From: Lacticaseibacillus yichunensis
Lineage (GTDB): Bacteria; Bacillota; Bacilli; Lactobacillales; Lactobacillaceae
NCBI RefSeq assembly: GCF_003946405.1
Contig: NZ_RHOG01000021.1
Coordinates: 1-45,215 of the forward strand
Direction of reading: 5' to 3'
Length of the DNA stretch: 45,215 nucleotides
A program made the position numbers and the translations under genes. Below, in pieces: positions 5,554-40,729 of the stretch. Position 1 is the first letter of the stretch; the number at the start of each line of letters is the position of its first letter. The notes below the pieces were generated by a model, which worked only from the letters and a program-made list of their open reading frames with translations, made no database searches and was not told where the DNA came from.

Positions 5554-5670
5554 GGGTGCGGAAGCTCGCGGGATGTCCGGGCGGCTAGTTTGGCCCAGTG
5601 CGTATGGCGCATTTCGCCTCGAGTGCACGTGACAGTTAGACGCTCTAGCCCTAGCCCGCGAAGCCCAACT
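5554..5670 (-). repeat. Structured intergenic repeat, copy A (full length)
   Basis: A 117-bp unit bounded on the plus strand by GGGTGCG (5554) and AGCCCAACT (5662-5670). Stems: CGCGGG 5567-5572 with CCCGCG 5655-5660, and GGCTAG 5583-5588 with CTAGCC 5645-5650; the apical part is degenerate. It lies in the likely 5' UTR of the MFS gene, in the same orientation. Confidence 0.8.
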
Positions 5671-5674
5671 GTGA

Positions 5675-5718
5675 GGGTGCGGAGACCCGCGGGACACTGG
5701 ACCAATTAGACGGGCCTC
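5675..5718 (-). repeat. Partial copy A2 of the structured repeat
   Basis: Begins with GGGTGCG four bases after copy A and keeps CCCGCGGGA, then degenerates; only one half of the palindrome is present. Confidence 0.6.
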
Positions 5719-5956
5719 AACTTCGACCCCAACACCCAGCGAGGCTCACCCGAGTTCTATTTTCATTCCCGCACTCATTTTTAATGAAAATTGCAATTAA
5801 TAATGATAGCACTTTTTTGCAAATCTGTATATTAAAACGACTCGGCGGAAAATGCGAGAGTCCTTGTTGCTGTTGCGCCGAACCGTCATTCAAAAAAATA
5901 AGTCAGCACGCATCTCGGCGTCCTGACTCAATTTTTACAACTTGATTTTCAAGGTC
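5719..5956. other. AT-rich intergenic leader with inverted repeat and terminator
   Basis: An AT-rich stretch upstream of the MFS gene. An 8-bp inverted repeat, ATTTTCAT at 5759-5766 and ATGAAAAT at 5784-5791, could be an operator for the drug exporter. No clear -35/-10 pair was found. The right part holds the terminator of the next gene. Confidence 0.4.
5893..5938 (-). terminator. Terminator of the CNNM/HlyC gene
   Basis: AAGTCAG pairs with CTGACT around a roughly 18-base loop; on the minus strand the stem is followed by TTATTTTTTTG. It lies just past the stop of the minus-strand CNNM gene. Confidence 0.7.
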
Positions 5957-7330
5957 TTACTCGTCGTCATCCGTGGCGTCTTCGTCGTCATCGGGGATGA
6001 TCTCTGGGCCAACCGTGACGTTGAACCAGTTGGCAAAGCCGCGCGAGAAATCGGCGACGGTGAAGGTGTAGCGGTCGACTTGAACGCTGTCGTGCAGCTT
6101 GAGCTCAGGATGATCTTCCATCAAAAAGCCGGCGACGGTGATGATCTCTGAATCCTGGAACTCGCGGAGCTTGGTGTGGAAGAACCGTTCGAAATCATAC
6201 AGCGTGGTTTTCCCGCTGACCTTGTAGACATCTGGGTCCTCTGTTTTGATGATGTATTCATCGGAGACGTCATCGATCTCGTCTTTGACAGTTCCGAATA
6301 ACTCTTCATAAATATCTTTGTCAGTGACGATGCCCGAGGTGCCGCCATATTCATCCACGACGACCACGATCGGTGCCTGTTTTTGAATCATCTGCGTCAG
6401 AATCGTTGAGATCGGGGTGACTTCCGGGACGGTGATGATCGCGCGCAGAAGCTTGGAAACATGCACGCTGTCATCGACCTGGGCCTGTTTGACGAGGTCG
6501 TAGATGTAAACATAGCCGAGCACCTTGTCTTTGTCGCCATTTGCGACGACCGGGAAGCGGCTGTAGCCTTCTTGCAGATATTTGCGCAGGACCTCTTTGA
6601 CCGTCGCGGTGATATCGATGACGACCAAGCTGGTGCGGTCGACCATGATGTCATGCGCCTCTTTGTCGTTGAGGTCAAAGGCGCGCTGCATGTACACCAC
6701 ATCGTTTTGGTCCATTTCGCCGGTGGTCACGGCTGCCTTGGAGAGATTGAGAATCTCCGCCTGGCTAAAGGCCTCGTTGCCTTCGTCGGCAGGCTTCATG
6801 CCAAGCAGGCGCACCAGTCCGTTCGCGGACACATTGAGCAGCCAAACGAAGGGGTAGAAGACCAGGTGAAAATAGTGCAGCGGTGTGACGACCAGCATCA
6901 GGACCTTGATCGGAATGTCGATCGCGATGTTTTTCGGCACGATCTCCGTGATGACGACTTCCAGATAGGTCAACACAATGACCCCGAGCACGGCCCCCAC
7001 TGCATGGAGCCCACCGTTTGGCAACTGGAGATGCACCAGCTGCATCAGATCGATCAGAATAAATTCCATGAAATCCTCGCCGATCCAGCCGAGGATGATC
7101 CCGCAGACCGAGGTGCCGACCTGTGTGGTTGATAAATATTCATTCAGCCGGTGGACCATGCGCAAGGCGCGCTGCAATTTCTTGCGGTTGCCTTGGCCCT
7201 GGTCCAGCATTTCCTCAAGTGCACTTGGCCGGCTTTGCACCAACGCAAACTCCGCCGCAACAAAAAAAGTGGCGAAGACGAACGTGATGACTAGTATTCC
7301 TAGATTAGAGGCAACTTGGCCACTATCCAT
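5957..7330 (-). CDS. CNNM/HlyC-family (CorC-like) membrane transporter with CBS pair
   Basis: A 457-residue membrane protein. An N-terminal DUF21/CNNM domain with about four hydrophobic segments (residues 10-160) is followed by two CBS domains (about 205-335) and a C-terminal CorC_HlyC domain (about 350-440) ending in an acidic tail (DDDEDATDDDE). Characterised bacterial CNNM proteins export magnesium or sodium; older annotations call them haemolysins. The start at 7328-7330 has GAGGAATGA upstream. It is a single-gene unit with its own terminator. Confidence 0.93.
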   Translation of the reverse strand: MDSGQVASNLGILVITFVFATFFVAAEFALVQSRPSALEEMLDQGQGNRKKLQRALRMVHRLNEYLSTTQVGTSVCGIILGWIGEDFMEFILIDLMQLVHLQLPNGGLHAVGAVLGVIVLTYLEVVITEIVPKNIAIDIPIKVLMLVVTPLHYFHLVFYPFVWLLNVSANGLVRLLGMKPADEGNEAFSQAEILNLSKAAVTTGEMDQNDVVYMQRAFDLNDKEAHDIMVDRTSLVVIDITATVKEVLRKYLQEGYSRFPVVANGDKDKVLGYVYIYDLVKQAQVDDSVHVSKLLRAIITVPEVTPISTILTQMIQKQAPIVVVVDEYGGTSGIVTDKDIYEELFGTVKDEIDDVSDEYIIKTEDPDVYKVSGKTTLYDFERFFHTKLREFQDSEIITVAGFLMEDHPELKLHDSVQVDRYTFTVADFSRGFANWFNVTVGPEIIPDDDEDATDDDE

Positions 7331-7480
7331 TCATTCATTCCTCATTTCATGCATATGTGGCTCTATTTTAACATTTTTACTCGCGGTGTACACGGGGACC
7401 CGCGCGGCATCGCGTTTCCCCAAGCCGGCGGGCGGTGGTGTAGAATAGAGACGGTAATTGCCGAAATGAAGGAGACGCAG

Positions 7481-8308
7481 ATGGATCAAGTGACGATGTA
7501 CCGCGAAACGATGCGCCGCTTCGCGAAAAAACCGGAGTGGCCGATCAGCGAATTGATCACGGAACCGCTGCCCGCAACGTCTGGCAGGGCTGAAGGTCAA
7601 CGACGCCGCACGGGCGAGGGCAAAACGCCTTTCACGGCTGATGACGAAACGCTTGGCCGGCCGGTAGACGAAACCCCGTGGCGGCTGGTGAACGCGGATG
7701 TACTGACGGTGATGGCCAAGCTCCCCGGCCGCGTCGGCGTGATGAATTTTGCCAGTCCCACACGGCCAGGTGGCGGGGTGGAGCTGGGCGCACAGGCGCA
7801 GGAAGAGGCAATCGCAAAGGGCACCTACCTTGTGCCGGCGTTGGAACAATTTTGCGCAACGTATTATGAAGTCAACCGCGCTCATCCCAACCGCGGCCTC
7901 TTTTCGCCGTGGCTGATCTATTCGGCGGGGGTGCGGCAGGTGTTTTCCGGAACCGGCGCGCCTGTAGCCGACCACCAAGTTGATATCGTGACCGTGGCGG
8001 CTCCGGATCGGCGGCGCGGGCACCTGAGCGATGCCGAGGCCCTGGCGGATATCGAATTCAAAATCAGCCAGACCTTGCGCGCGATGAAAAAACATGGCGT
8101 GACCACCCCCATCTTGGGCGCGTTTGGCAGTGGGGTGTTCGGTAATCCCCCGCGGGAAGTCGGCCGCCTGTTTGCGCAGCAATTGGCCCGGCCGGAATTT
8201 GCCGGCGTGTTTGAGACGATCTGGTTCGCAGTTTATGACCGGCGTGGCACGGTTTTGCCTCTGTTTGTGGCGGGACTCGGCCGTGATCTGAAGGAGGAAA
8301 CAATATAA
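7481..8308 (+). CDS. TIGR02452-family macrodomain protein (bacterial PARG-like)
   Basis: A 275-residue protein of the TIGR02452 family, related to microbial poly(ADP-ribose) glycohydrolases. The PARG signature of three glycines followed by tandem Glu is visible as GGGVELGAQAQEEA (about residues 104-117), preceded by MNFASPTRP. FGSGVFGNPP near residue 215 matches the second loop of the fold. Known relatives hydrolyse ADP-ribose chains or bind ADP-ribose; which applies here is inference. ATG 7481 follows AAGGAG at 6 bp. The stop codon abuts the next start codon, so it forms an operon with the amidotransferase. Confidence 0.88.
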   Translation: MDQVTMYRETMRRFAKKPEWPISELITEPLPATSGRAEGQRRRTGEGKTPFTADDETLGRPVDETPWRLVNADVLTVMAKLPGRVGVMNFASPTRPGGGVELGAQAQEEAIAKGTYLVPALEQFCATYYEVNRAHPNRGLFSPWLIYSAGVRQVFSGTGAPVADHQVDIVTVAAPDRRRGHLSDAEALADIEFKISQTLRAMKKHGVTTPILGAFGSGVFGNPPREVGRLFAQQLARPEFAGVFETIWFAVYDRRGTVLPLFVAGLGRDLKEETI

Positions 8309-8944
8309 ATGGTAGAAGTTGTTGTTTTACAACATGCGGATAATTGTGGACCGGGCTTTGTCGCGGATTGGGCGGCGGCGCATGACGTGACGCTCAAGCT
8401 GCTTAGGCCGGATCAAGGTGAAAATCTGATGCCGCTGCGGGCCAGCGAGTTGAACGGTCTAATCATCCTGGGCGGACCGCAAAGCGTCAATGATGATCTG
8501 CCGTGGCTGTCGTCTGAGCGAATTTTGGTGCGGAGCCTGGATCAGCGCAATCGGCCGGTGTTTGGCATCTGCCTTGGTGCCCAGCAGATCGCCCGGGCGT
8601 TTGCGGCGGGAGTTGGCCCGCTGACGTACCCGCAATATGGCCGCACCATGGTCACGAATGCGGCGACTGGCGCGACGTTGCCGGTTTTTGAGGCGCACAC
8701 AGAAGGTATCACCGCTTTTCCGGGGATGACGCAAACGTATTCAGACGAGCTCGGCGCGGTGCAGGGCTTCAAGTATCATCGACATTTGGCGGCGGTCCAA
8801 TTTCACCCGGAGCTGGACGTTGCGGCGTTTCAGACCATCGCCAATGAAGAAGGATTTGCATCGGCCCCGGTCTTGACGGAGGCGGAAGTGGCCGCCAGCA
8901 AGCAATTACTCTTCGATGAACTGGACGCCTGCTTTGCATTTTAA
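8309..8944 (+). CDS. Class I glutamine amidotransferase-like protein
   Basis: A 211-residue stand-alone GATase1 domain. The nucleophile Cys is in GICLGAQ (about residues 87-93) and the catalytic His in QFHPEL (about 167-172), followed by a C-terminal helix. Such free GATases resemble GuaA N-terminal domains and YfeJ/GAT1-type proteins and may deglutamylate or transfer ammonia; the acceptor is unknown. GAGGAAACAATATAA precedes the ATG and the gene starts directly after the PARG-like stop codon. The C-terminal context is repeat copy B. Confidence 0.9.
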   Translation: MVEVVVLQHADNCGPGFVADWAAAHDVTLKLLRPDQGENLMPLRASELNGLIILGGPQSVNDDLPWLSSERILVRSLDQRNRPVFGICLGAQQIARAFAAGVGPLTYPQYGRTMVTNAATGATLPVFEAHTEGITAFPGMTQTYSDELGAVQGFKYHRHLAAVQFHPELDVAAFQTIANEEGFASAPVLTEAEVAASKQLLFDELDACFAF

Positions 8945-8947
8945 AAA

Positions 8948-9056
8948 GGGTGCGAAGGGCCGCGGGATGGTGGAACAGCTAACTTGGGCCTGGCGCTTGG
9001 GGCTGTCTTTAGCCCCGAGTGACAGGCACAGTTAGATGTTTCCGCCATGCGGCCCG
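8948..9056 (-). repeat. Structured intergenic repeat, copy B (one end lost)
   Basis: Starts GGGTGCG at 8948. Four stems are visible: GGGCCGC/GCGGCCC (outer), ATGGTGGAA with TTTCCGCCAT (second), CTAACT/AGTTAG (third) and GGGGCT/AGCCCC (apical). The terminal AGCCCAACT box is replaced by unrelated sequence. Lies between convergent genes. Confidence 0.8.
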
Positions 9057-9072
9057 GCGCCCGACAAAGACA

Positions 9073-10204: not shown

Positions 10205-10239
10205 CATGCGGCCAAGATGTGGGCCGAGAATGCTTGGAA

Positions 10240-10306
10240 GGGTGTGACGCCGAGCGCTTAGGGGTGGACAACTAGATGTTCCACCCCTGCTCGGCGGAGC
10301 CCAACT
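10240..10306 (-). repeat. Structured repeat, mini copy C (apical half deleted)
   Basis: A 67-bp derivative with both end boxes (GGGTGTG at 10240, AGCCCAACT at 10298-10306). It keeps the outer stem GCCGAG/CTCGGC and second stem GGGGTGGA with TTCCACCCC, but the third and apical stems are gone. Oriented like the downstream minus-strand gene. Confidence 0.8.
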
Positions 10307-10334
10307 GTGGAAGGGGCGATGGCCTACCGGAATC

Positions 10335-10844: not shown

Positions 10845-11050
10845 CGAAAACGCTCGTTGTTATCACTTTTTTTATTTACGTATCTTGACACTTGTTATTA
10901 ACACGCGTGCAATCGTTTGCTTTGCCTCTCGGACGTAGCTGATACCGGGAACCGGTGGATGGAATTGCGACGGAAACGGCAAGAATGGCAATTATTTTTT
11001 ACGGCTGAAGGCGTGGCGGCTGGAGGAGGCTTTTCGGAGCATAAATTTGC
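10845..11050. other. Intergenic stretch without a recognised gene
   Basis: About 200 bp between the XRE promoter and repeat cluster D. It holds an isolated TTGACA (10884-10889) without a good -10 partner, and small GC-rich palindromes. Short open frames here have no protein-like composition and overlap the repeats. Confidence 0.5.
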
Positions 11051-11103
11051 TTCAAGCGCCAGGGCCAAGTTAGCTGTTCCACCATCCCGCGGGCCTTCGC
11101 ACC
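11051..11103 (+). repeat. Partial copy D0 (3' half) of the structured repeat
   Basis: Contains the descending arm only: TTAGCTGTTCCACCAT, then CCCGCGGGCC and a CGCACC end box, without its 5' partner. Confidence 0.7.
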
Positions 11104-11105
11104 GT

Positions 11106-11226
11106 AGTTGGGCTACGCGGGGCAGAGGTGAGGCAGGTAGTCGTCCCGGCCACTCGATGGCCAAGTGCGCCATCAATCGTCCCGGCCGCCCTACCTGCTC
11201 ACCGCTGAGTGCCCCGCTTCGCACCC
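11106..11226 (+). repeat. Structured intergenic repeat, copy D1
   Basis: AGTTGGGCT (11106-11114) to CGCACCC (11220-11226). Stems: GCGGGGCA/TGCCCCGC, GGTGAG/CTCACC continued by CAGGTAG/CTACCTG, and apical GATGGC/GCCATC. Confidence 0.88.
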
Positions 11227-11227
11227 T

Positions 11228-11347
11228 AGTAGGGCTCAGGCCTGCATGGTGGAAACATCTAGGCACCTCAAGCGCTCGATGGCCAAGCGCGCCATCAATC
11301 GCTTGAGCCGACCTAGCTGTTCCACCATCTCGCGGGCCTTCGCACCC
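11228..11347 (+). repeat. Structured intergenic repeat, copy D2
   Basis: Immediately follows D1. Four clean stems: GGCCTGC with GCGGGCC (one G-T), ATGGTGGAA/TTCCACCAT, CTAGG/CCTAG plus CTCAAGCG/CGCTTGAG, and apical GATGGC/GCCATC. Ends in CGCACCC (11341-11347), 69 bp before the usp start codon. Confidence 0.88.
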
Positions 11348-11416
11348 TGTCTTTTTCTTGTTTTTCCCGGCTGGCTGGCGTAGGCTTATTGGTATAGAAG
11401 ACAAGGAAGTGATCAT

Positions 11417-13751: not shown

Positions 13752-13763
13752 CGATTTTTGGTG

Positions 13764-13887
13764 AGGGTGCGTAGCGGGGCGTTTAGGTATGAGCAGGTAG
13801 TTCGGCCCAGACGATTGATAGCGCACTTGGCCATCGAGCGGCTGGGTCGACTTAGCTGCCCACCCTAAAACACCCCGCTCGACACCC
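13764..13887 (-). repeat. Structured intergenic repeat, copy E (symmetric ends)
   Basis: Unlike other copies both ends carry the same box (GGGTGCG left, CGACACCC right). Outer stem GCGGGG/CCCCGC continues as GTTTAGG paired with CCTAAAAC; the apex is the minus-strand form of the GATGGC/GCCATC module. It precedes the minus-strand 60-residue gene. Confidence 0.8.
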
Positions 13888-13968
13888 TTTGCGGCGCTTA
13901 TCATAGGCGTGCCGCGCAATAAATGATACAATGAAAATGATTTTGACGCTCAAGGGAGGACGAACCCC

Positions 13969-19022: not shown

Positions 19023-19036
19023 GGCGAGGCTGGAAA

Positions 19037-19096
19037 GCTTAGGTCAACGGATTGAGCAGACCGAGCTGTTCCACAATCCCGCGGGCCTGCGCCCCC
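19037..19096 (+). repeat. Partial copy F0 (3' half) of the structured repeat
   Basis: Descending arm only, with GAGCTGTTCCACAATCCCG and a degenerate end box (CGCCCCC). Begins 14 bp after the pdp stop codon. Confidence 0.65.
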
Positions 19097-19104
19097 TGTT
19101 TCAT

Positions 19105-19215
19105 AGTTGGGCTCCGCCGAGCAGGGGTGGGACATGTAGTCGGCCTGGTCACTAGGTGGCAAGGTGCGCCACCAAGCGCCCAGGCCGAACTACCTGCCCA
19201 CCCCTAAACGCTCGG
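19105..19215 (+). repeat. Structured intergenic repeat, copy F1
   Basis: Starts AGTTGGGCT. Stems: GCCGAGC/GCTCGGC, AGGGGTGGG/CCCACCCCT, GTAGT/ACTAC plus CGGCCTGG/CCAGGCCG, apical GGTGGC/GCCACC. All differ from those of H copies yet pair. The 3' box is lost by fusion to F2. Confidence 0.85.
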
Positions 19216-19302
19216 CTCCGGCCCGCATGATCGAGGTATCTAGTTGTCTCGTGCACTCGAGGCAAACTAGCTACTCGACCATCCCGCGGGCCTGCGCACC
19301 CT
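19216..19302 (+). repeat. Structured repeat, shortened copy F2
   Basis: Fused to F1 without a 5' box. Keeps GGCCCGC with GCGGGCC and ATGATCGAG with CTCGACCAT; the apical stems are reduced to a short loop. Ends CGCACCC. Confidence 0.75.
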
Positions 19303-19309
19303 TTTTCAT

Positions 19310-19426
19310 AGTTGGGCTCCGCGGGGCAGGTCTGAGGCATCTAGGTCGCCCGTCACTCGGGGCGAAGACCGCCCCAAGCGCCAGGCTAGCCTAGCTGCTC
19401 AGACCAAAGCGCCCCGCTCCGCACCC
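19310..19426 (+). repeat. Structured intergenic repeat, copy F3
   Basis: AGTTGGGCT to CGCACCC. Stems GCGGGGC/GCCCCGC, GGTCTGAG/CTCAGACC, CTAGG/CCTAG, apical GGGGC/GCCCC. Nearly identical to H2. Confidence 0.9.
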
Positions 19427-19432
19427 TTCCGC

Positions 19433-19550
19433 AGTTGGGCTCCGGCCCGCATGGTCGAGGTATCTAGTTGTCTCGTGCACTCGAGGCGAAGACCGCCTCA
19501 AGCACCCGAGCCAAACTAGCTACTCGACCATCCCGCGGGCCTGCGCACCC
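19433..19550 (+). repeat. Structured intergenic repeat, copy F4
   Basis: AGTTGGGCT to CGCACCC. Stems GGCCCGC/GCGGGCC, ATGGTCGAG/CTCGACCAT, CTAGTT with AACTAG, apical GAGGCG/CGCCTC. Nearest unit to the cydA leader. Confidence 0.9.
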
Positions 19551-32656: not shown

Positions 32657-32658
32657 GA

Positions 32659-33222
32659 CTAAGTCTCCTTCTTCTTGCGACGGCCGCGATCAAAACGCAG
32701 CCGCTGCAGTGTGTCGACATGTTCGAATAAAAAGTTTGCGGCAACGCCGACTGCCAGCCCAGCGAGGATGCCCATAAAGGAAAGCACTGGCAGATAAAGC
32801 ATGACCGTCCAGCTCTGAGCGATCCAACTGGCCACAGTCAGCTGCCCGACGTTGTGCAAGATCCCGCCGGCCGTGGAGATGCCGATCATGCTGACGCGTT
32901 TTGGCCCGAGCTGTTTGATCAGGAGCATTCCGCACCAACTCAGCAGGGCCCCAGCGCCGCTGTATAAAAAGGTCGAGAGCGTGCCGCCAAGTAGCGTGGT
33001 CAAGACCAGGCGAAGCACCATCAGTAAAAAACTGTCCGGGACCGACATGGTAAACAGCGAGACGATCGTGATCAGATTGGCGAGGCCCAGTTTTGCCCCA
33101 GGCGCAAACGCAAACGGAAACGGAATCATGCGCTCGAGCAGGCCGATGATGACGCCTTGCGCGCACAGCAGGGCGATGTAGATCACCTGCCTGGTGCGTT
33201 CGGGCCGATACTCACGTGTCAT
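32659..33222 (-). CDS. eetB: EetB, Gx transporter-family membrane protein
   Basis: A 187-residue integral membrane protein with about five helices, of the Gx (heptaprenyl synthase component I-like) family. FAPGAKLGLANLITIV (about residues 39-54) is the family signature. In Listeria and lactobacilli eetA and eetB are required for extracellular electron transfer; they are thought to pass electrons or assemble the flavin system in the membrane. Start overlaps eetA stop. Confidence 0.9.
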   Translation of the reverse strand: MTREYRPERTRQVIYIALLCAQGVIIGLLERMIPFPFAFAPGAKLGLANLITIVSLFTMSVPDSFLLMVLRLVLTTLLGGTLSTFLYSGAGALLSWCGMLLIKQLGPKRVSMIGISTAGGILHNVGQLTVASWIAQSWTVMLYLPVLSFMGILAGLAVGVAANFLFEHVDTLQRLRFDRGRRKKKET

Positions 33223-33662
33223 TCTGTCACCATCCCGCCTGTGTTGTTGCCGCTGCTGGCCGTGGTGCTCTTGATCTCGATCAGCAGTTTATGCGGCAAG
33301 CAGACGATGGTTTGACCCGGGCGACTGATCTGCCCCTCGCGCACGCAGACCTGGTCCTTGCAGTTGGCCTCTTTGATCGCGATCTTCGAGCCGGTCGCGA
33401 CGATCTCGTTCCATTCGTCGCCATCGTTGTAGCGAAAACGCGTCGTGCCCTTGTGGCCGGTGAGCTTTAGCCGGTAGACTTCTTTGCCGTCATGCGTGAC
33501 CACGGCGGTGTAAACGGCGGGTTCTGTGCGGGTCGCTTTTTCCTGCGCCTGCTGCCGGGCAAACACAACATAGGGAATAAATGCGGCAAGCATGAGGGCG
33601 ACGACAATGATCACGTCGAAGGGGCGGATCATGTGCAAATATTTTCGAATGCCACGGTCCAT
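33219..33662 (-). CDS. eetA: EetA, NusG-domain-II extracellular protein
   Basis: A 147-residue membrane-anchored protein: one helix (about residues 16-34), then an extracytoplasmic NusG domain II with the paired Cys motif CKDQVCVREGQISRPGQT and CLPHKLLI. ATG 33660-33662 has AAGGAGGGA upstream; a TTG 8 codons earlier was rejected because it lies before the RBS. It is the first of the eetA-eetB-dmkB group; a terminator hairpin separates it from ndh2. Confidence 0.9.
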   Translation of the reverse strand: MDRGIRKYLHMIRPFDVIIVVALMLAAFIPYVVFARQQAQEKATRTEPAVYTAVVTHDGKEVYRLKLTGHKGTTRFRYNDGDEWNEIVATGSKIAIKEANCKDQVCVREGQISRPGQTIVCLPHKLLIEIKSTTASSGNNTGGMVTE

Positions 33663-33689
33663 CCTGCGTCCCTCCTTTTTTGCCAATGA

Positions 33690-33724
33690 AAAAGTCCTGA
33701 GGCCAGTCTACCTCAGGACCTTTC
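33690..33724. terminator. Terminator between ndh2 and eetA
   Basis: GTCCTGAGG pairs with CCTCAGGAC. On the minus strand it is followed by TTTTTC, so it should cut ndh2 transcription before eetA. Confidence 0.8.
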
Positions 33725-33769
33725 TAGCGGGCAAGGGGCATCGAGGCCACTTGCTTGCTGGCAGCTGAC

Positions 33770-35674
33770 TTACTTCATGACCGAGCTGCCATAAAGTGCT
33801 TTAGGTTTCCCATACCGCCACTTGCCAAAGACCTTCTGCAGGTAAGGCACGACCCATTTGTCGAGCCCGAAGCTGCGGCCTGAACCGTTCATGACGGCGA
33901 TGGCCATTGGGATCATCCAAATGTTGACCCAGTAGAACATCCCACTCAGGCAGAAGATCGCGGTGAAGGCAACGGACACGGCACCGCTCAGCCAGGTGAA
34001 GAGGCCGGCGACAAGTGCCAAGCCGATCAGCACTTCGATGACCGTCATCGACTTTTGCATGAAGAAGGCGACTTGTTGGTTTGGAATCAGTGTCTTGGTG
34101 ATGCTGTACATCCAGTTTGGCATTTGATCAAAAACCATCATCGGATCCTTGCCATATTGATAGGAAAGGGAGAAGACAGCCTTGGCCGCTTCCTTGGTGG
34201 CATCCGCCGCTGCGCCAGACGCCGCGCTTGTGGCATCAGCACCGGCTGCGGACGCACCACTGGTTGCCGCTGGCTGGAGCCAGGAAAATGGCAAGCGCAG
34301 TTTATCAACGAACCAGGATTCGCTGGAGCTGAAGATCTTCGGCCAGCAATCCACCAACCACATCAGACCCAAGAAGATCCGTGCGGGCACTGCCCACAGC
34401 ACATTGCCTTGACGGGAAATGTGGCCACGCATCAGGTTGCGATCGTTGCGGGTACGGAAGAATTCGTGCATGAAGTATTGGAACAGATAGTAGCCAGAGA
34501 AGATCTGGATGAAGTAAAGCATGTTGACAAGATGCTTCATCAACATCGCGAAGAACCCGGACAGATGCAGCCAGCCCATGATGTTGGCCACGCCGTAACG
34601 GGAGCCGAGGGAGACCATGAAGCCGGAGTAGGATGCTTTGTAATCCGTGTCACCGGCTTGGCCAGCCATCTTCTTTTCGATGTTGGTCAACGCGGTCTGG
34701 GCACTGGCTTCGGCGCCTTGAACGATCTGAGGTTCGCCGCGATCGGAATTGCCAGCGAAGAAGGAAACGTCACCGACAACATAGACGTTCGGGTCGTCTT
34801 GGCTCTCCATGTGAGAGTTGACCACGATCCGGCCGGCGCGGCCCTGAGTCAGGCCAAAATTCTTGGCTTGGTCGGTGGCCTTGACGCCAGCGGTCCAGAT
34901 CAAAGTCGAAGTCGGGAAGGTCGAGCCGTCTTTGAGATCAACATAGTCTTCATGAACGCCGATCACGCCGGTATTCTTCATGACCTTGATGCCGCGCTTG
35001 ATCATGTAGCGTTCGGCCTTATCAGCATCGCTGCGGTCGAGCATGTTCATGATCGTTGGGGCCATTTCCATCAAAGAGAAGGTGATCTCTTCGGGGTCGA
35101 TCTTATTTTCCTTGGCCAGCACATCGCGCCAATCGCGAAGCTCGCCAATCGTTTCGGTCCCGGTGAACCCGGAGCCAACGACAACGATGGAAAGCAGAGC
35201 CTTGCGCTTGTCGGGATCTTGTTCGACCGCCCCGCGGCGAACAACATCTTCGATATGCGCCTTGAGCTGAATGGCCTGTTCCCAGGAACCCAATGTGAAG
35301 CCGTTCTCTTTGACCCCAGGGGTGCCAAAATCATTTGGCTCCGAGCCGATGCCGAGCATCACATAGTCGTAGGGATAAGCACCGTGTTTGGTCTTGACGA
35401 CCTTATTTTCGCGATCAATGTTGGTGACCGTGTCGGTGACCAAGTTGACGTTCTTACGGCGGCAGAAGAGACGCTGCAGATCGTATTGAATCGCATCTTC
35501 AGGTGTTCGATCGGCTGCAATCTCATGTAGCTCGGTCATATAGGTGAAATACGAGTGACGGTCGATCAAGGTGATGGTGACATCTTGGTCTCGCTTAAAA
35601 TGTTTTGCGAGTCGCTTCGTTGCGTAAACGCCGGCAAACCCCGCGCCGACAACAACGATATTTTTTTGCGCCAT
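33770..35674 (-). CDS. ndh2: Type II NADH dehydrogenase of the EET locus (with C-terminal membrane domain)
   Basis: A 634-residue flavoprotein that passes electrons from NADH to demethylmenaquinone. The FAD-binding GAGFAG lies at about residues 9-14 and the NADH site GSGFTGTE at about 167-174. Beyond residue about 400 it has a DoxX-like domain of about four helices, with an Ala/Ser-rich linker (about 510-535), so it is far longer than ordinary NDH-2 (about 400); this extension marks the EET-specific form. ATG 35672-35674 follows AAGGAGTG. Divergent from pplA. Confidence 0.94.
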   Translation of the reverse strand: MAQKNIVVVGAGFAGVYATKRLAKHFKRDQDVTITLIDRHSYFTYMTELHEIAADRTPEDAIQYDLQRLFCRRKNVNLVTDTVTNIDRENKVVKTKHGAYPYDYVMLGIGSEPNDFGTPGVKENGFTLGSWEQAIQLKAHIEDVVRRGAVEQDPDKRKALLSIVVVGSGFTGTETIGELRDWRDVLAKENKIDPEEITFSLMEMAPTIMNMLDRSDADKAERYMIKRGIKVMKNTGVIGVHEDYVDLKDGSTFPTSTLIWTAGVKATDQAKNFGLTQGRAGRIVVNSHMESQDDPNVYVVGDVSFFAGNSDRGEPQIVQGAEASAQTALTNIEKKMAGQAGDTDYKASYSGFMVSLGSRYGVANIMGWLHLSGFFAMLMKHLVNMLYFIQIFSGYYLFQYFMHEFFRTRNDRNLMRGHISRQGNVLWAVPARIFLGLMWLVDCWPKIFSSSESWFVDKLRLPFSWLQPAATSGASAAGADATSAASGAAADATKEAAKAVFSLSYQYGKDPMMVFDQMPNWMYSITKTLIPNQQVAFFMQKSMTVIEVLIGLALVAGLFTWLSGAVSVAFTAIFCLSGMFYWVNIWMIPMAIAVMNGSGRSFGLDKWVVPYLQKVFGKWRYGKPKALYGSSVMK

Positions 35675-35728
35675 GGATACACACTCCTTAGTGTAGATGA
35701 TGCCAGATAATGGCTGATTGCATGACAA

Positions 35729-35758
35729 ATTATACCCTCTAATTGCGTTCATTGTCCA
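35729..35758 (-). promoter_or_regulatory. Promoter of ndh2
   Basis: Minus strand: -35 TGGACA (35753-35758), 18-bp spacer, perfect -10 TATAAT (35729-35734). Confidence 0.75.
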
Positions 35759-35797
35759 CGCCTTCACGAGGATTGATACCGTTTTCTGTGAAATTGA

Positions 35798-35867
35798 TGT
35801 AAGCGTGTCAAAAGCGCGCGCTTATCGCAACCGCAAACGGTGCCATAAAAATGAGAAAGCGCTCATA
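35798..35867. promoter_or_regulatory. cre-like and palindromic sites between ndh2 and pplA
   Basis: TGTAAGCGTGTCA (35798-35810), AAGCGCGCGCTT (35812-35823) and ATGAG-N6-CTCAT with AAAGCGCT in it (35851-35866) cluster in the divergent promoter region. They fit CcpA-type half sites, suggesting carbon control of both EET arms. Confidence 0.4.
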
Positions 35868-35882
35868 ATCGAATGGTCATTG

Positions 35883-35911
35883 TTGCTTTTTGCACATGCT
35901 GTGAGTACACT
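35883..35911 (+). promoter_or_regulatory. Promoter of pplA
   Basis: -35 TTGCTT (35883-35888), 17-bp spacer, -10 TACACT (35906-35911). Confidence 0.65.
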
Positions 35912-35978
35912 TGGTTTGTGTGAAATGTAACACAAGGGGCAACAAGTGTTGCAAAAAAGGCGCAAAGGGGAAAACACC

Positions 35979-36905
35979 ATGAAGTTAAGTAAAGTATTCG
36001 CGACTGTCTCCGTACTCGCAGTGTCTGTTTTGACATTGTCCGCATGTGGGAGCAGCTCATCCAGTGACTCGAGCTCCAAAGCAAGTAGCTCGAAAGTTGA
36101 AAAGTCCTCGTCAAGCAAGACCGAGGAATCCTCAGAAGCCAAGCAGACTGCTGGCGGGGCGCTGAAGGACGGAACATACAAGCTTGAAGAAGCTGACTTC
36201 TCTCACGGCTATAAAGTGGAGATGTCGATCACTGTCGCAGACGGCAAGATCTCTGATTCGACCTATGACTATGTCGACAAAGATGGCAAGTCCAAGCAAG
36301 ACGATGCCGACTACGAAAAGCAGATGAAGAAAGTCAACAACGTCGGCCCGAAGGAATACATTCCTGAACTCAAGGAATCCCTCGACAAGAATGGCACGAA
36401 TGTTGGCGCCATCGACGTTGTTTCCGGTGCGACCGATTCATCCTTGACCTTCAAGAACTATGTCCAGCAACTGATCCAGGCTGCCCAAGCAGGGAGCACG
36501 GACACGATCAAGATCGACAACACCGCGAAGATGAAAGACGGCACCTACACGCTTGAGGAAAAGAACTATTCTCACGGCTACCGTGTCCACTTTGAGATTG
36601 TGGTTGCTGGCGGAAAGATCACCGAAAGCAAGTACGACAACATCGACAAGGATGGCAAGTCCAAGACCGATGATGCGGCTTACGAAAAGCAAATGAAGAA
36701 GGTCAACAACGTCGGTCCTAAGGAATACACCAAGGCCCTCAACGAATCCTTGGTCAAGAACCAGGAACCAGCCAAGGTCGAAGTTGTTTCCGGTGCGACG
36801 AGCTCCTCTGACTCCTTCATCCTTTATGCACAGCAGTTGATCAACGCTGCTCAGGCTGGCAACACCAACACGATCGAGATCGACAACATCGTTTACGGCG
36901 AATAA
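35979..36905 (+). CDS. pplA: PplA, flavinylated extracellular electron-transfer lipoprotein
   Basis: A 308-residue surface lipoprotein carrying covalent FMN and passing electrons to outside acceptors. The lipobox LSAC ends at Cys23, then a Ser-rich linker (about 24-60). Two FMN-binding domains follow (about 62-185 and 188-308), so alike that they look duplicated. Each has the flavinylation motif: VSGATDSS and VSGATSSS. The Thr in S-G-A-T is the expected FMN site, modified by FmnB. ATG 35979 follows AAAGGGG; upstream MLQ start was rejected. Confidence 0.95.
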   Translation: MKLSKVFATVSVLAVSVLTLSACGSSSSSDSSSKASSSKVEKSSSSKTEESSEAKQTAGGALKDGTYKLEEADFSHGYKVEMSITVADGKISDSTYDYVDKDGKSKQDDADYEKQMKKVNNVGPKEYIPELKESLDKNGTNVGAIDVVSGATDSSLTFKNYVQQLIQAAQAGSTDTIKIDNTAKMKDGTYTLEEKNYSHGYRVHFEIVVAGGKITESKYDNIDKDGKSKTDDAAYEKQMKKVNNVGPKEYTKALNESLVKNQEPAKVEVVSGATSSSDSFILYAQQLINAAQAGNTNTIEIDNIVYGE

Positions 36906-36936
36906 CAGTCGAAACGCGCAACTCATAGTTTGACGA

Positions 36937-36968
36937 AGCAGGGACAAAACCTCGGTTTTGTCCCTGTT
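36937..36968 (+). terminator. Terminator of pplA
   Basis: CAGGGACAAAAC pairs with GTTTTGTCCCTG (12 pairs, short loop CTCG). The T tract is weak. Confidence 0.75.
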
Positions 36969-37016
36969 CCTATGTCTAGGGAAAAAATGATGCGGCGAAC
37001 GGGGCCTGTTGGGCGA

Positions 37017-37061
37017 CGGGCTAGCCTACCTGATCGACCATAAACGTGCACCTTCGCACCC
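37017..37061 (+). repeat. Partial copy G0 (3' half) of the structured repeat
   Basis: Only the descending arm: CTAGCCTACCTGATCGACCA and a GTGCACCTTCGCACCC end. Confidence 0.7.
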
Positions 37062-37066
37062 TTTGC

Positions 37067-37184
37067 AGTTGGGCTACGGTGCGCATGGTCGAGACAGCTA
37101 GGTACGCCCGTCACTCGGGGCTAAGAGCGCCCCAAGCGCCAGGCTAGCCTAGCCGCTCGACCATAAACGCGCACCTTCGCACCC
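37067..37184 (+). repeat. Structured intergenic repeat, copy G1
   Basis: AGTTGGGCT to CGCACCC. Stems GGTGCGC/GCGCACC, ATGGTCGAG/CTCGACCAT, CTAGG/CCTAG, apical GGGGC/GCCCC. Outer stem sequence differs from all other copies but pairs perfectly. Confidence 0.9.
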
Positions 37185-37246
37185 TTTTCTTTTTGGTCAA
37201 ACGCCGGTATATTTAAATCGATAACACGCGTGGGAGGCGCACTCGA

Positions 37247-38320
37247 GTGAAAAAAAGATGGCTCAAACAAGCAGCACTGGCGCTTATCGCGCTAGTCATT
37301 TTACCGCTGGCGGCCTGCAACCAGGCAAAACCGGCGACCAAGGCACCGGAGTTGGTGAAGACCCCGTATCAGGATACCCAGTTTCTGATGGGGACCGTGG
37401 TGACCTTACGCATTTATGACAAAGGCAAACAGCCCGTTCTTGAAAAAGCGTTCGATCGCATCAAGGAACTCGCCGATGCGATCACCGTCAACCAAAAGGG
37501 CTCGCAGGTCGATGCGGTCAACGCCGCAGCCGGCAAGCACGCGGTGAAAGTCGATCAGGACGTTTTTGACCTGATCACTTACGCCAAATCGTACAGTGAA
37601 CAGTCCAACGGGAGCTTTGACCTCGCAATCGGCCCAATCACCAGCCTGTGGCACATTGGGTTTGCCGATGCCAAGAAGCCGACACAAAGCGAGATCGACG
37701 CCCGCCTGCCGCTGGTGCACTACCAGGATGTGACCCTGAACGCCGCAAAGCGCACGGTCTATCTGCAAAAAAAGGGGATGGCGATCGACCTGGGCGGCAT
37801 CGCCAAGGGCTACATCACCGATCAAGTGGTCAAGGTCCTCAAGAAAAATGGGGTGACCACCGCGATTGTTGACCTCGGCGGCAATATTTATGTGCTCGGC
37901 CACAGTCCCAAAGCAAAAGACGCAGATTGGACGGTCGGCATTCAAGATCCCAAGCAGACTCGAGGCAGCTCGCTTGGCACGATTCCGGCCAGCAACAAGA
38001 CCATCGTCACTTCGGGCATCTACGAACGGTATCTGAAGGTCGACGGCAAGATCTACATGCATTTGATGAACCCCAAGACCGGTTATCCGTTCGACAACAA
38101 CTTGATGGGCGTGTCGATCATCACCAAGCACTCCGTCGACGGGGATGCGCTCTCGACGGCCACATTCGACAAGGGGCTCAAGGATGGCTTGGCCTTCATT
38201 GAAAAACGCAAGGACACCGAGGCAATTTTCATCACCAAAGACAAAAAAGTTTATATCAGTAGCGGCCTGAAAAAGACGTTCAAGCTGATCACAGGCCTTG
38301 GCTACACGATGGGCAATTGA
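37247..38320 (+). CDS. fmnB: FmnB, ApbE-family FMN transferase lipoprotein
   Basis: A 357-residue lipoprotein (lipobox LAAC, Cys24) that covalently attaches FMN from FAD to PplA outside the cell. ApbE motifs: FLMGTVVTLRIY (about 46-57), GGIAKGYITDQV (about 183-194), VDLGGNIYVLG (about 207-217) and DGDALSTATFDKG (about 300-312), the last with the Mg-binding residues. GTG 37247 has GGGAGG upstream. Downstream of pplA across repeat cluster G. Confidence 0.94.
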   Translation: MKKRWLKQAALALIALVILPLAACNQAKPATKAPELVKTPYQDTQFLMGTVVTLRIYDKGKQPVLEKAFDRIKELADAITVNQKGSQVDAVNAAAGKHAVKVDQDVFDLITYAKSYSEQSNGSFDLAIGPITSLWHIGFADAKKPTQSEIDARLPLVHYQDVTLNAAKRTVYLQKKGMAIDLGGIAKGYITDQVVKVLKKNGVTTAIVDLGGNIYVLGHSPKAKDADWTVGIQDPKQTRGSSLGTIPASNKTIVTSGIYERYLKVDGKIYMHLMNPKTGYPFDNNLMGVSIITKHSVDGDALSTATFDKGLKDGLAFIEKRKDTEAIFITKDKKVYISSGLKKTFKLITGLGYTMGN

Positions 38321-38420
38321 TCGGCTGTCATTTTTCTGACGCACATAATATAGAAGAAAATCATTTGTCGGCTTGGTCGGCAAATGCTGGAGGCAACGCG
38401 ACAACAAGTTGGGGGTCAAC

Positions 38421-39374
38421 ATGAGTATTCGTGCATTTTGGGAGTTAGTCGAGGGACCGACGAAATTGGCAAGTGTCTTGCCTTTTTGTGTGGGGACCTT
38501 GTTTGCGGCCGTGGTGTTAGGGCAGGTCAATTGGGTCAACAGCACCCTGTTTTTCGTGGCGATGCTGTTGTTTGACATGACCACCACCGCGATCAATAAC
38601 TGGATGGATTATCGTAAGGCAAAAGACGACCAGTATCGGCAAACGGTGAACGTGATCGGGCGCAGGCAGTTGCCGACTGCCTTGGTGCGCGCCGTCATCT
38701 GGGGGATGTTGGCGGTGTCCACCGCGCTGAGCCTGGTGTTGGTCTGGCGCACGGACTGGCTGTTGCTGCTGGCAGGCGGGGCGTGTTTTGTGGTCGGCAT
38801 TTTCTACACATTTGGGCCGCTGCCGTTGTCTCGCATGCCGCTGGGCGAACTGTTTTCCGGGGTGGTGATGGGCCTTGGCATTCCCGGTATAGCCGCCTAT
38901 GTGGCCGCGCGCACAACGCCATTTTTGCGGTTGACATTTGCCTGGCCAAACCTGGCGCTGGCAGGGGATTGGCCGGCGCTGGTCGCTTTAGCCTTCGTCT
39001 GCGTCACGCCAATGGCCACGATCGCCAATGTGATGCTGGCCAACAACATGTCCGATCTCGCAGAGGACACCGCCAACAAGCGCATGACCCTGCCGATGTA
39101 TCTGGGCCCGGCCCACAGTCGCCTGCTGTACACGCTACTGGCATATGGCGGCTATGTGGCGGTGGTGCTGGCAGTCGCAGTTGGCCTGCTGCCGTGGCCA
39201 ACGCTGGTGGCACTGCTGACGCTGCCCTGGGCGATGCGCAACACCAACCGCTTCCGCCATCGCCAGGACAAGCGCCTGACGTTCAAGACCTCGCTGTACA
39301 ACTTGCTCCTTGAAAATGGCGGGCTGATCGCCGGTCTTTTGCTCAGTCTGCTAGTGAAGGGAGGGGTGCGCTGA
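38421..39374 (+). CDS. dmkA: UbiA-family prenyltransferase, first of a tandem pair (DmkA-like)
   Basis: A 317-residue membrane enzyme that prenylates dihydroxynaphthoate for the EET quinone. First motif NNWMDYRKAKDD (about residues 56-67), second ANNMSDLAEDTANKRM (about 207-222). ATG 38421 has a weak ribosome site (GGGGG). It shares a 1-bp overlap (TGATG) with the next gene. Its second Asp motif differs from that of its neighbour (SDLAED against CDIDQD), so the two may not be redundant. Confidence 0.88.
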   Translation: MSIRAFWELVEGPTKLASVLPFCVGTLFAAVVLGQVNWVNSTLFFVAMLLFDMTTTAINNWMDYRKAKDDQYRQTVNVIGRRQLPTALVRAVIWGMLAVSTALSLVLVWRTDWLLLLAGGACFVVGIFYTFGPLPLSRMPLGELFSGVVMGLGIPGIAAYVAARTTPFLRLTFAWPNLALAGDWPALVALAFVCVTPMATIANVMLANNMSDLAEDTANKRMTLPMYLGPAHSRLLYTLLAYGGYVAVVLAVAVGLLPWPTLVALLTLPWAMRNTNRFRHRQDKRLTFKTSLYNLLLENGGLIAGLLLSLLVKGGVR

Positions 39375-40336
39375 TGGACACGGAAAAAACCTATCGCCCA
39401 CTGACCTGGCCACTTTTTCTGGAGTTGATTCGGTTGCCTGCAAAAGCAGCGAGCCTGCTGCCATTTTTGCTCGGGGTGGCATATGCAAAACTCGCATTCG
39501 GCCAGCTGGATTGGGTCAACACCTCTCTGTATTTTGTCGGGCAAATGAGCATCGCGCTGTTTGTCACCGGCTTCAACAACGTTCAGGATTACTACAAGGC
39601 AAAAGACTTACAGTACCGGGCGACCCAGAATATCATTGGCCGCGAGCATCTGTCCCCGCGGCGGATGCTCGCGTTGATGGGGGCGTTTCTCGCGTTGGCG
39701 GTGGTGATGGGCTTGGCGCTCGTCTGGCGAACCAATTTGAGCCTGCTTTTGATCGGCGGCGCCGGGATCTTCGTGGCGATCTTCTACACCTTTGGCCCAG
39801 TGCCATTGTCGCGGATTCCTTGCGGGGAGCTGCTGGCGGGGCTGTGCGAAGGCTTTGGCACGATCTTCATCGCGTGCTTTGTGAATATCACGCCGCGACC
39901 GGTCGATCTGACTTTCACAGCGAGCCATTTCGCTTTGTCCGCTGACTTGAGTGTGATCCTGCAACTGCTGCTGGTCGCCCTGCCGATCGTGATCCTGGAT
40001 GGCACGGTGATGTTTGCGGACAATATCTGCGACATCGACCAGGACATCCGCAACCAGCGCTTCACCTTGCCCTATTACCTGAGCAAGGAAAAAGCACTCC
40101 GCATTTACCCATGGTTGCCGCGCCTGGCTTTTGCCTGTGTGGTGCTGGCTGTGCTACTTCGGCTTCTCCCGTGGCCGCTTTTGGCCGTATTGCTGCTGTG
40201 GCCTCTGGTGCGGCGCAATACGCAGCGCTTCTTGGCAAAACAGAGCAAGCAGGAAACGTTCAATACCGCGATCTCCTCGCTATTGTTGGTGGCGAGCGGG
40301 GAAGTGGTGCTGATAGTGGTGGCCATTTGGTTGTGA
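39374..40336 (+). CDS. dmkA: UbiA-family prenyltransferase, second of a tandem pair (DmkA-like)
   Basis: A 320-residue membrane protein of the same family. First motif FNNVQDYYKAKDLQYR (about residues 57-72), then NIIGREHLSP; second motif ADNICDIDQDIRNQRF (about 215-230). These are closer to the menA gene product at 26778 (NIIGTNHLDP; NNICDEVED) than those of the gene before it. ATG 39374 overlaps the preceding TGA by 1 bp. Repeat cluster H follows 8 bp after the stop. Confidence 0.88.
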   Translation: MDTEKTYRPLTWPLFLELIRLPAKAASLLPFLLGVAYAKLAFGQLDWVNTSLYFVGQMSIALFVTGFNNVQDYYKAKDLQYRATQNIIGREHLSPRRMLALMGAFLALAVVMGLALVWRTNLSLLLIGGAGIFVAIFYTFGPVPLSRIPCGELLAGLCEGFGTIFIACFVNITPRPVDLTFTASHFALSADLSVILQLLLVALPIVILDGTVMFADNICDIDQDIRNQRFTLPYYLSKEKALRIYPWLPRLAFACVVLAVLLRLLPWPLLAVLLLWPLVRRNTQRFLAKQSKQETFNTAISSLLLVASGEVVLIVVAIWL

Positions 40337-40343
40337 GCCTCCG

Positions 40344-40366
40344 CTATCCCGCGGGCTTGCGCACCC
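40344..40366 (+). repeat. Partial copy H0 of the structured repeat
   Basis: TATCCCGCGGGC and CGCACCC only, the last part of a descending arm. Confidence 0.6.
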
Positions 40367-40369
40367 TTC

Positions 40370-40487
40370 AGTTGGGCTTCGGCTCGCATGGTCGAGGTAT
40401 CTAGTTGGCTCGGACGCTCGAGGCGAAGTGCGCCTCAAGCATCCAAGCCAAACTAGCTACTCGACCATCCCGCGGGCCTCCGCACCC
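40370..40487 (+). repeat. Structured intergenic repeat, copy H1
   Basis: 118 bp. Stems GGCTCGC with GCGGGCC (one G-T), ATGGTCGAG/CTCGACCAT, CTAGTTGGCT with AGCCAAACTAG, apical GAGGCG/CGCCTC. Confidence 0.9.
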
Positions 40488-40490
40488 TGC

Positions 40491-40608
40491 AGTTGGGCTA
40501 CGCGGGGCAGGTCTGAGGCATCTAGGTACGCCCGTCACTCGGGGCTGAGAACGCCCCAAGCGCCAGGCTAGCCTAGCTGCTCAGACCTAAGCGCCCCGCT
40601 TCGCACCC
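40491..40608 (+). repeat. Structured intergenic repeat, copy H2
   Basis: 118 bp. Stems GCGGGGC/GCCCCGC, AGGTCTGAG/CTCAGACCT, CTAGG/CCTAG, apical GGGGC/GCCCC. Separated from H1 by three bases. Confidence 0.9.
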
Positions 40609-40611
40609 TGC

Positions 40612-40729
40612 AGTTGGGCTACGCGAGGCAGGTCTGAGGCAGCTAGGTTCGCCCGTCACTCGGGGCTAAGAACGCCCCAAGCGCCAGGCTAGCCTAGCTG
40701 CTCAGACCTAAGCGCCCCGCTTCGCACCC
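40612..40729 (+). repeat. Structured intergenic repeat, copy H3
   Basis: 118 bp and nearly identical to H2; one outer-stem change (GCGAGGC against GCCCCGC) gives an A-C mismatch. Confidence 0.9.

What the first reader, a model, noticed from the sequence alone, without database searches (positions are those of the whole stretch)
5554..40729. Modular, covarying palindromic repeats at eight intergenic loci
Twenty copies (12 full or nearly full, two shortened, six partial) of a roughly 118-bp unit occupy eight intergenic loci. Each unit runs from AGTTGGGCT to CGCACCC and folds as four stacked stems. The stem sequences differ but stay paired: outer GCGGGGC/GCCCCGC, GGTGCGC/GCGCACC, GCCGAGC/GCTCGGC, GGCCCGC/GCGGGCC; second AGGTCTGAG/CTCAGACCT, ATGGTCGAG/CTCGACCAT, ATGGTGGAA/TTCCACCAT, AGGGGTGGG/CCCACCCCT; apical GAGGCG/CGCCTC, GATGGC/GCCATC, GGTGGC/GCCACC, GGGGC/GCCCC. 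Such compensation implies selection on, or copying through, the folded form. Stems also recombine as modules (same second stem with different outer stems). I know no named family of this type in lactobacilli.
Basis: partly seen in the sequence, partly recalled or inferred. Interest (0 to 1): 0.88.

Follow-up and report, generated by a model that had tools for sequence, protein, structure and literature searches.

The report
Strand-specific hairpin repeats across Bacilli
Hundreds of copies of a roughly 125-base hairpin, whose letters keep changing while its pairing is kept, sit between the genes of a Lacticaseibacillus, and relatives with different stem letters but the same architecture occur in many other Bacilli, so this looks like an old, uncatalogued family of structured repeats.

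Summary
The repeat is one ~125-nt hairpin with bulges. The window's genome, a Lacticaseibacillus near L. mingshuiensis, holds at least 240 copies in 110 arrays. In 129 copies 96% of paired cells stay paired although 28 of 40 pairs change on both sides; a tree-aware null leaves 18 of 40 pairs (this genome) and 29 of 40 (many species) above all 200 simulations. Relatives occur in seven families of Lactobacillales and four more of Bacilli; no Rfam family reached its threshold. Arrays have an exact start and usually a ragged end; units and stems turn over fast at old loci. Orientation to genes is random, and IS200-type transposase or reverse transcriptase genes do not track copy number. Best reading: a non-autonomous hairpin repeat kept and spread through its folded single strand, working like REP, ERIC or MITE repeats, but failing the REP tests I could make. 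The copying enzyme is unknown.

The parts
5551..5673 (+). one decayed full-span unit (strand = favoured strand, AGGGTGCG to AGCCCAACT)
   Evidence: nhmmer; fold -44 kcal/mol
8944..9070 (+). one full unit directly after the stop codon of the gene at 8309-8944
   Evidence: 113 bits; stop-codon offset
10238..10310 (+). deletion derivative: both ends of a unit, most of the hairpin missing; the L. mingshuiensis orthologue has lost still more
   Evidence: locus 63
11035..11351 (-). array: units 11227-11351 and 11104-11228, then a partial unit 11105-11035
13761..13894 (+). one shortened unit
   Evidence: 43 bits
19101..19554 (-). array of four units (19430-19554, 19306-19430, 19214-19305 with internal deletion, 19101-19228) between a pyrimidine nucleoside phosphorylase gene and the cytochrome bd subunit I gene; further debris at 19026-19095
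37017..37188 (-). one full unit 37063-37188 followed by a partial unit 37064-37017
40367..40733 (-). array of three full units (40608-40733, 40487-40612, 40367-40489) ending in a short stub

Best explanation
A family of non-autonomous, hairpin-forming intergenic repeats whose folded single strand (RNA or single-stranded DNA) is the thing recognised. Shown here: one ~125-nt hairpin; covariation; constraint on one strand; hundreds of copies; head-to-tail arrays with an exact 5' end (AGGG) and a usually ragged 3' end; short spacers that tend to match the flank; fast turnover of copy number and of whole stems at mostly old, shared loci; presence on plasmids; no match in one of 25 congeners. Inferred: an unidentified enzyme or replication-linked process copies or converts units through the folded strand, starting at the AGGGTGCG end and often breaking off inside the hairpin. 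Because only well-folded units are copied onward, stems drift in sequence but stay paired. Not shown: that the element moves today, which molecule (RNA or ssDNA) is the intermediate, and which enzyme acts.
For: Covariation and its controls. Strand asymmetry 207 of 208 in this genome and 230 of 238 matches elsewhere (6 both-strand calls and the rows of five G000 or L. mingshuiensis loci left out, at least one G006 copy counted twice). Polarity: 109 of 110 arrays here and 83 of 85 in L. mingshuiensis start with an intact 5' end, while 87 of 110 and 68 of 85 end in a 5' fragment of a unit 9-110 nt long; shuffled flanks gave such a stub in 0 of 82 and 1 of 65. Spacers resemble the sequence left of the first unit: mean common suffix 2.08 against 1.42 shuffled (maximum 1.71 of 500), and 2.24 against 1.25 (maximum 1.63); adjacent spacers identical in 29 of 104 and 11 of 41 against ~3% expected (the pattern also caught false 'spacers' inside units, which adds noise). 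No preferred context in unbiased L. mingshuiensis DNA: 23, 21, 19, 16 arrays in the four gene arrangements (79 of 85; 6 overlap a predicted gene). Plasmid copies in L. paracasei, L. rhamnosus and Pediococcus. Congener G012 has no match, 84 candidates scored. Counts of units and parts differ at 42 of 57 orthologous loci.
Against: Loci themselves are old: 51 of 57 arrays compared still have a unit or part in the sister species, and 50 of 52 in the reverse comparison, which is biased because most DNA held from this genome was fetched around hits. Of the six loci without one, two (30, 45) show stumps where the hairpin was lost, others keep end remnants, and only one (102) is a clean empty site, with no outgroup to tell gain from loss. 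No mobiliser was found: G006 and G011 are rich in copies yet have no Y1_Tnp and no RVT_1 match; other transposases were not searched. Constraint inside orthologous copies (63 against 25; paired sites change less than unpaired) suggests some function or conversion in place beyond past mobility. Arrays do not simply grow at one end: units without an orthologue are found on either side. The G021 excess of spacers fully equal to the flank, 10 of 54, was reached by the best of 500 shuffles.
Confidence: 0.55

Rival explanations
1. A functional RNA element: each copy acts in cis in transcripts (RNase III site, mRNA 3'-end protection, terminator or attenuator) and is kept by selection on that role.
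For: Purifying pattern within orthologous copies: G.U-keeping changes 63 against A.C-making 25; 116 of 1198 unpaired sites changed against 164 of 3612 paired ones (sum of the classes). Very stable single hairpin with pyrimidines at the apex. On the less stable strand, 39% of 85 arrays have an A-rich flank that would give a U-tract after the hairpin, against 13% at a control position.
Against: Orientation and gene arrangement match background; the favoured strand is the same whichever way the neighbouring genes run; no promoter-like excess before the favoured strand (1 of 85 at 9 or more of 12 consensus bases); one congener gave no match.
Confidence: 0.22
2. Arm-to-arm correction: replication or repair uses one arm of the hairpin as template for the other, so pairing is kept by mutation alone, without selection.
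For: Arms are separated by recombination: 12 of 129 copies were flagged with three or more mismatches in the outer or second stem (5 of the 12 only or partly through an arm of different length), and in one array the arms of two neighbours are exchanged relative to the sister species, yet most copies are well paired.
Against: Templated correction would erase one-sided bulges, fixed mismatches and recurrent G.U pairs, and it has no strand preference; these persist in most copies across species. Only 5 fully compensated double changes against 137 one-sided changes between a Watson-Crick pair and another state in 38 orthologous copies.
Confidence: 0.1
3. A MITE or REP-type repeat of an ordinary transposon: ends recognised by a known transposase (IS200/RAYT, IS630 or similar).
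For: Length, intergenic location, copy number and flank-matching spacers resemble MITEs; two Y1_Tnp genes exist in this genome.
Against: Y1_Tnp has no match in several copy-rich congeners and one in the copy-free G012. Stems differ entirely between species, unlike inverted repeats tied to one transposase. Other transposase families were not tested.
Confidence: 0.1
4. Double-stranded DNA structure (cruciform, gyrase or nucleoid-protein site).
For: The outer stem is almost free of G.U in all four sets counted, as a structure needed on both strands would be.
Against: A cruciform is symmetric; 437 of 446 copies folded favour the same strand (207 of 208 plus 230 of 238).
Confidence: 0.03

Closest known systems
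ERIC repeats of enterobacteria (length and behaviour recalled; named among MITEs in a passage of PMC3733652)
   Same: About the same length, an imperfect palindrome, intergenic, many copies.
   Different: ERIC is one sequence family (recalled); here stems differ completely between copies and species, units form tandem arrays, and the hosts are Bacilli. No sequence comparison with ERIC was made.
REP/BIME elements with RAYT transposases (passages of PMC3733652)
   Same: Palindromic, intergenic, arrays, proposed single-strand recognition.
   Different: REPs are 20-40 bp with a GTAG end and are associated with RAYT genes; these units are ~125 nt, lack such an end and do not follow Y1_Tnp genes.
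bcr1 of the Bacillus cereus group and EFAR of enterococci (named in PMC3733652 and, bcr1, in the reference list of PMC2267715; passages only)
   Same: Bacilli, repeated, classed with MITEs.
   Different: The title cited for bcr1 calls it specific to the B. cereus group. Their sequences were not held here, so overlap with the present family was not tested. The survey PMC2267715 also tabulates stem-loop clusters in L. johnsonii, E. faecalis and B. halodurans; whether any is this family was not tested.
Integron attC sites (recalled)
   Same: Function as one folded strand, stem sequence variable, architecture conserved; one end resembles RYYYAAC.
   Different: No matching GTTRRRY at the other end, and copies in other families have neither box as read by eye.

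Membership tests
Any Rfam 15 family | covariance-model match at gathering score | tested here: not met
   No match on the repeats in the window at gathering score. Below it, only hairpin models such as microRNAs: on a 381-base array and on copies in 36 loci of other species, the best being MIR1888 on L284 with 46.7 bits against a threshold of 72 (listed up to E = 0.05).
REP/RAYT | 20-40 nt palindrome with GTAG at one end | tested here: not met
   Units ~125 nt, ends AGGGTGCG and AGCCCAACT.
REP/RAYT | presence of a Y1 (IS200-like) transposase in carriers | tested here: not met
   G001, G006, G011 and G014 carry many copies without a Y1_Tnp match; G012 has one Y1_Tnp match and no copies.
MITE | terminal inverted repeats shared with an autonomous transposon | not tested
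   Only Y1_Tnp and RVT_1 were searched; other transposases were not.
MITE | target-site duplication | tested here: inconclusive
   Spacers match the left flank beyond shuffles, but only one clean empty site was found and it is ambiguous.
Retroelement (target-primed copying) | reverse transcriptase in carrier genomes | tested here: not met
   No RVT_1 match in this genome, G021, G006 or G011, despite the polar truncation such copying would leave. Only this one Pfam family was searched.
Integron attC | paired core boxes RYYYAAC and GTTRRRY at the two ends | tested here: not met
   Only one end resembles a box, in copies of this genome (read by eye). An integron integrase was not searched for.
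CRISPR array | near-identical short repeats separated by unique spacers of similar length | tested here: not met
   Units are ~125 nt, neighbours in an array often carry different stems, spacers are a few nt.
EFAR / bcr1 / ERIC | sequence match to the published consensus | not tested

The most novel reading that the evidence does not exclude
A Bacilli-wide lineage of ~125-nt hairpin elements that has spread and persisted with almost no sequence conservation in its stems, propagated by polar copying of one folded strand (exact AGGGTGCG start, break-off inside the hairpin) by a process that needs neither an IS200-type transposase nor a reverse transcriptase, perhaps RNA- or ssDNA-templated copying by host polymerases. 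That would be a kind of mobile or self-maintaining repeat not described before, as far as the eight literature searches made here can tell.
Probability: 0.25. Interest if true: 0.9.

Novelty: new variant of a known kind. Interest (0 to 1): 0.72.

Why it matters
If right, a structured repeat making up about 1.4% of some genomes (122 full and 25 partial copies in 1.2 Mb) and found in at least eleven families of Bacilli, food and probiotic species among them, is missing from the RNA-family catalogue, probably because its stems have no conserved sequence. It gives a natural experiment on how a folded strand is copied or kept: hundreds of paralogues per genome, sister species with turned-over arrays, and recombinants with mismatched arms. 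A model is now in hand that finds it, so expression, array dynamics and the acting enzyme become directly testable in ordinary laboratory lactobacilli.

Tried and rejected
Known RNA families: Rfam searches gave no match at gathering score on the repeats; below it, hairpin models such as microRNAs.

IS200/RAYT or reverse transcriptase as mobiliser: no association seen across 41 genomes. Other transposases were not tested.

Replication-strand dependence as in IS200/IS605: in G051, a one-contig genome whose first gene I read as dnaA from recall, the 150 scored matches form 119 arrays, 52 with and 67 against the replication direction with the terminus set at 1.5 Mb; no clear bias.

Own promoter: no excess of sigma-70-like sites before the favoured strand.

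Orientation to genes: a first count on 43 arrays chosen by similarity hinted at 20 against 10; the unbiased count in L. mingshuiensis gave 23 against 21, so I dropped it.

Array growth at one end only, as in CRISPR: not supported, units without an orthologue lie on either side.

Stop-codon targeting: in this genome and L. mingshuiensis the exact start often completes or abuts a stop codon (offset -1 or -2 in 25 of the 69 genes found ending within 60 bases, from 188 arrays with a defined start), while at the other end 25 genes end within 60 bases and 2 within 10. In G006 and G051 the effect was weak (3 of 32 and 1 of 43 arrays within 6 bases; the codon scores were trained on this genome). I do not build on it. 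The gene caller was a simple codon-score script of mine.

Conserved letters: loose patterns found the GnTTA-type bulge in 271 of 359 rows of six alignments but in only 15 of 39 of G006, and the 5' GCGnA pattern in none of 64 rows of G051, so the letters outside the stems are not universal either.

Naming the more distant hosts through plasmid records: four searches without a match; phage records: none for one G051 unit; one window unit has no plasmid match.

Literature: eight searches listed no paper that I recognised as being on this family; only passages of PMC2267715 and PMC3733652 were read, the rest were seen as listings.

Rows left out or mixed in: A4 holds the 129 copies above an E-value cut of 1e-17, weaker ones and some tandem neighbours are missing. 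One row of A5 (L013:1500-1622), one of A7 (L283:1499-1622) and a few of A6 and A10 are wrong-strand matches.
Full report
What is there. In the window, profile searches find 16 repeat units or large parts at eight loci, 12 of them spanning the whole model. The unit is ~125 bases with a few bases of spacer and folds as one long hairpin (86 of 90 full copies).

How many. The window's genome (G000, 2.56 Mb in 73 contigs; the window is contig C14) gave 150 matches of 150 scored candidates. In 433 kb fetched mostly around hits I count 208 full-span and 32 partial copies in 110 arrays of one to six units. It has 147 copies, 122 of them full-span, in 1.2 Mb of DNA not chosen by hits, 85 arrays. G006 gave 39 matches in 400 kb of contiguous DNA. 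G051, a one-contig 2.99-Mb genome, gave 150 of 150 scored.

Covariation. In 129 copies of this genome 96.0% of cells pair, 28 of 40 pairs have a change on both sides, and no shuffle of 500 reaches any of the five measures; sliding the partners by 1-3 columns drops pairing to 32-40%. In 74 copies, most of them from other species, 91.8% pair and all 40 pairs have double changes. The same holds for 25 rows mostly of other Lactobacillales (89.5%) and 28 rows of other Bacilli (85.9%). These alignments were fitted to the model, which helps the percentages, but the shuffles use the same alignment. Against a null that replays the same number of substitutions on a tree, 18 of 40 pairs (this genome) and 29 of 40 (many species) exceed all 200 simulations; the summed statistic is 2842 against a maximum of 577, and 3577 against 592. 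Recombination between copies violates the single tree, so this is a strong but not perfect correction.

Not a few fixed subfamilies. There are 24 outer-stem and 33 second-stem 5'-arm types among 129 copies; 76 copies with both stems fully paired show 33 combinations, for example one second stem with three different outer stems. Across species, 71 of 74 copies have a fully Watson-Crick outer stem, in 35 versions.

Strand. A palindrome should not care about strand, but this one does. The strand read here is more stable in 207 of 208 copies (mean -74.6 against -61.9 kcal/mol) and in 230 of 238 matches in other species (6 both-strand calls and five loci of G000 and L. mingshuiensis left out, at least one G006 copy counted twice). 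The reason is wobble pairs: G.U on this strand is A.C on the other. In 38 orthologous unit pairs between G000 and G021, those at least 88% identical, one-sided differences from a Watson-Crick pair were G.U 63 times, A.C 25 times and another mismatch 49 times; five were compensated double changes; unpaired sites differed in 116 of 1198 cases. A strand-symmetric mutation process would give equal G.U and A.C. So a single-stranded form has been constrained, RNA or ssDNA; the data do not say which. The outer stem is nearly free of G.U in the four sets counted, which I cannot explain.

Distribution. With model R1, 71 of 397 genomes of the family match, in 14 of 40 genera, eight candidates scored per genome. 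With the broader R2, 24 of 25 genomes of the window's genus match (not G012), one with only 7 matches; 37 of 295 genomes of the order, in 21 of 74 genera and seven families; 21 of 299 genomes of the class, with four further families and one marginal single match in a fifth; and 4 of 398 genomes of the phylum, all in Bacilli. The large searches scored only 8 to 11 candidates per genome with strict filters, so these are lower bounds and absences are weak. Named carriers, 13 of 80 loci of at most ~21 kb around CydA, include L. mingshuiensis, L. saniviri, L. zeae, L. hegangensis, Loigolactobacillus, Companilactobacillus, Secundilactobacillus and Lentilactobacillus; plasmids of L. paracasei, L. rhamnosus and Pediococcus carry it (14 records). 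Distant copies share the architecture and often the bulge and the pyrimidines at the apex, but not the stem letters. No Rfam family reached its gathering score on the repeats.

Arrays. Nearly all arrays begin at an intact AGGG end (109 of 110 and 83 of 85) and most end in a 5' fragment of a further unit, 9 to 110 bases long (87 of 110 and 68 of 85); shuffled flanks gave 0 of 82 and 1 of 65. Spacers inside an array tend to be alike and to match the flank before the first unit. This polarity, exact start and ragged end, is what copying from a folded template that breaks off in the hairpin would leave. It is also compatible with old, partly deleted last units.

Turnover. Of 110 arrays, 57 have both flanks in the G021 DNA held. 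Counts of units and parts differ at 42 of 57, and six have none in G021. Among those six, two (30, 45) show stumps where the hairpin is missing between AGGGTGCG and AGCCCAACT, others keep end remnants, and one (C36, locus 102) is a clean empty site. Orthologous arrays can hold quite different units with the same flanks, and neighbours can have exchanged arms. Loci are thus mostly old while their contents change quickly.

Context. In G021 the arrays fall in the four gene arrangements much as background would predict (23, 21, 19, 16 of 79; six of 85 overlap a predicted gene). There is no clear replication-strand bias in G051 and no promoter signal. In G000 and G021 the exact start often abuts or completes a stop codon, an effect weak in G006 and G051.

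Reading. The simplest account that fits strand constraint, random context, plasmid carriage, arrays and turnover is a non-autonomous repeat kept and spread through its folded single strand, with gene conversion between copies. It works like REP, ERIC or MITE repeats but fails the tests for REP/RAYT that I could make, and no RNA family in Rfam covers it. A cis-acting RNA role remains the main rival because static copies still show constraint. I rate the family as real with high confidence, the mobile-hairpin account at 0.55, and the copying mechanism as unknown.

Noticed in passing
window 31679-40336: A cluster resembling a flavin-based extracellular electron transfer locus (name recalled): polyprenyl synthetase, Hpre_diP_synt_I, NusG_II, Pyr_redox_2, a protein with two FMN_bind stretches, ApbE and two UbiA proteins. 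Two repeat arrays lie inside or next to it.
   Followed up: partly
window 36234-36891: The direct repeats D7 and D8 lie in the gene with two FMN_bind stretches (35946-36905) and look like that domain duplication, unrelated to the hairpin repeats.
   Followed up: partly
G000 C31, C73, C25 (two arrays), C5, C17, C19; similar in G021: Several arrays start right after a terminator-like U-tract followed by the same letters (TTTTTGATTC), at different genes. Either a variant element end or a target preference.
   Followed up: no
G000 C73 and C34; G021 orthologues of loci 30 and 45: Stumps of about 22 bases (AGGGTGCG joined to AGCCCAACT), in C73 two in a row, where the hairpin is missing. Looks like precise hairpin loss.
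   Followed up: partly
genome G006 (same genus): The most first-look candidates of the genus sample (1833 with R2, 2315 with R1; G011 is close) and no Y1_Tnp or RVT_1 match: a good genome for seeking the acting enzyme.
   Followed up: partly
Pediococcus acidilactici plasmids, e.g. NZ_CP021485.1 12751-12867: Eight P. acidilactici plasmids and one P. inopinatus plasmid carry a unit about 78-80% identical to one of G051, which suggests transfer between genera.
   Followed up: partly
all four alignments counted, outer stem: The 7-bp outer stem is almost free of G.U pairs although inner stems tolerate them. Unexplained.
   Followed up: no
L311 1707-1773: A Bacillaceae-1 RNA (RF01690, 76 bits) lies 83 bases after a hairpin unit at 1501-1624 on the same strand.
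   Followed up: no
window 44058-44177: Ribosomal protein L10 leader (RF00557), the only Rfam match in the window at gathering score.
   Followed up: no
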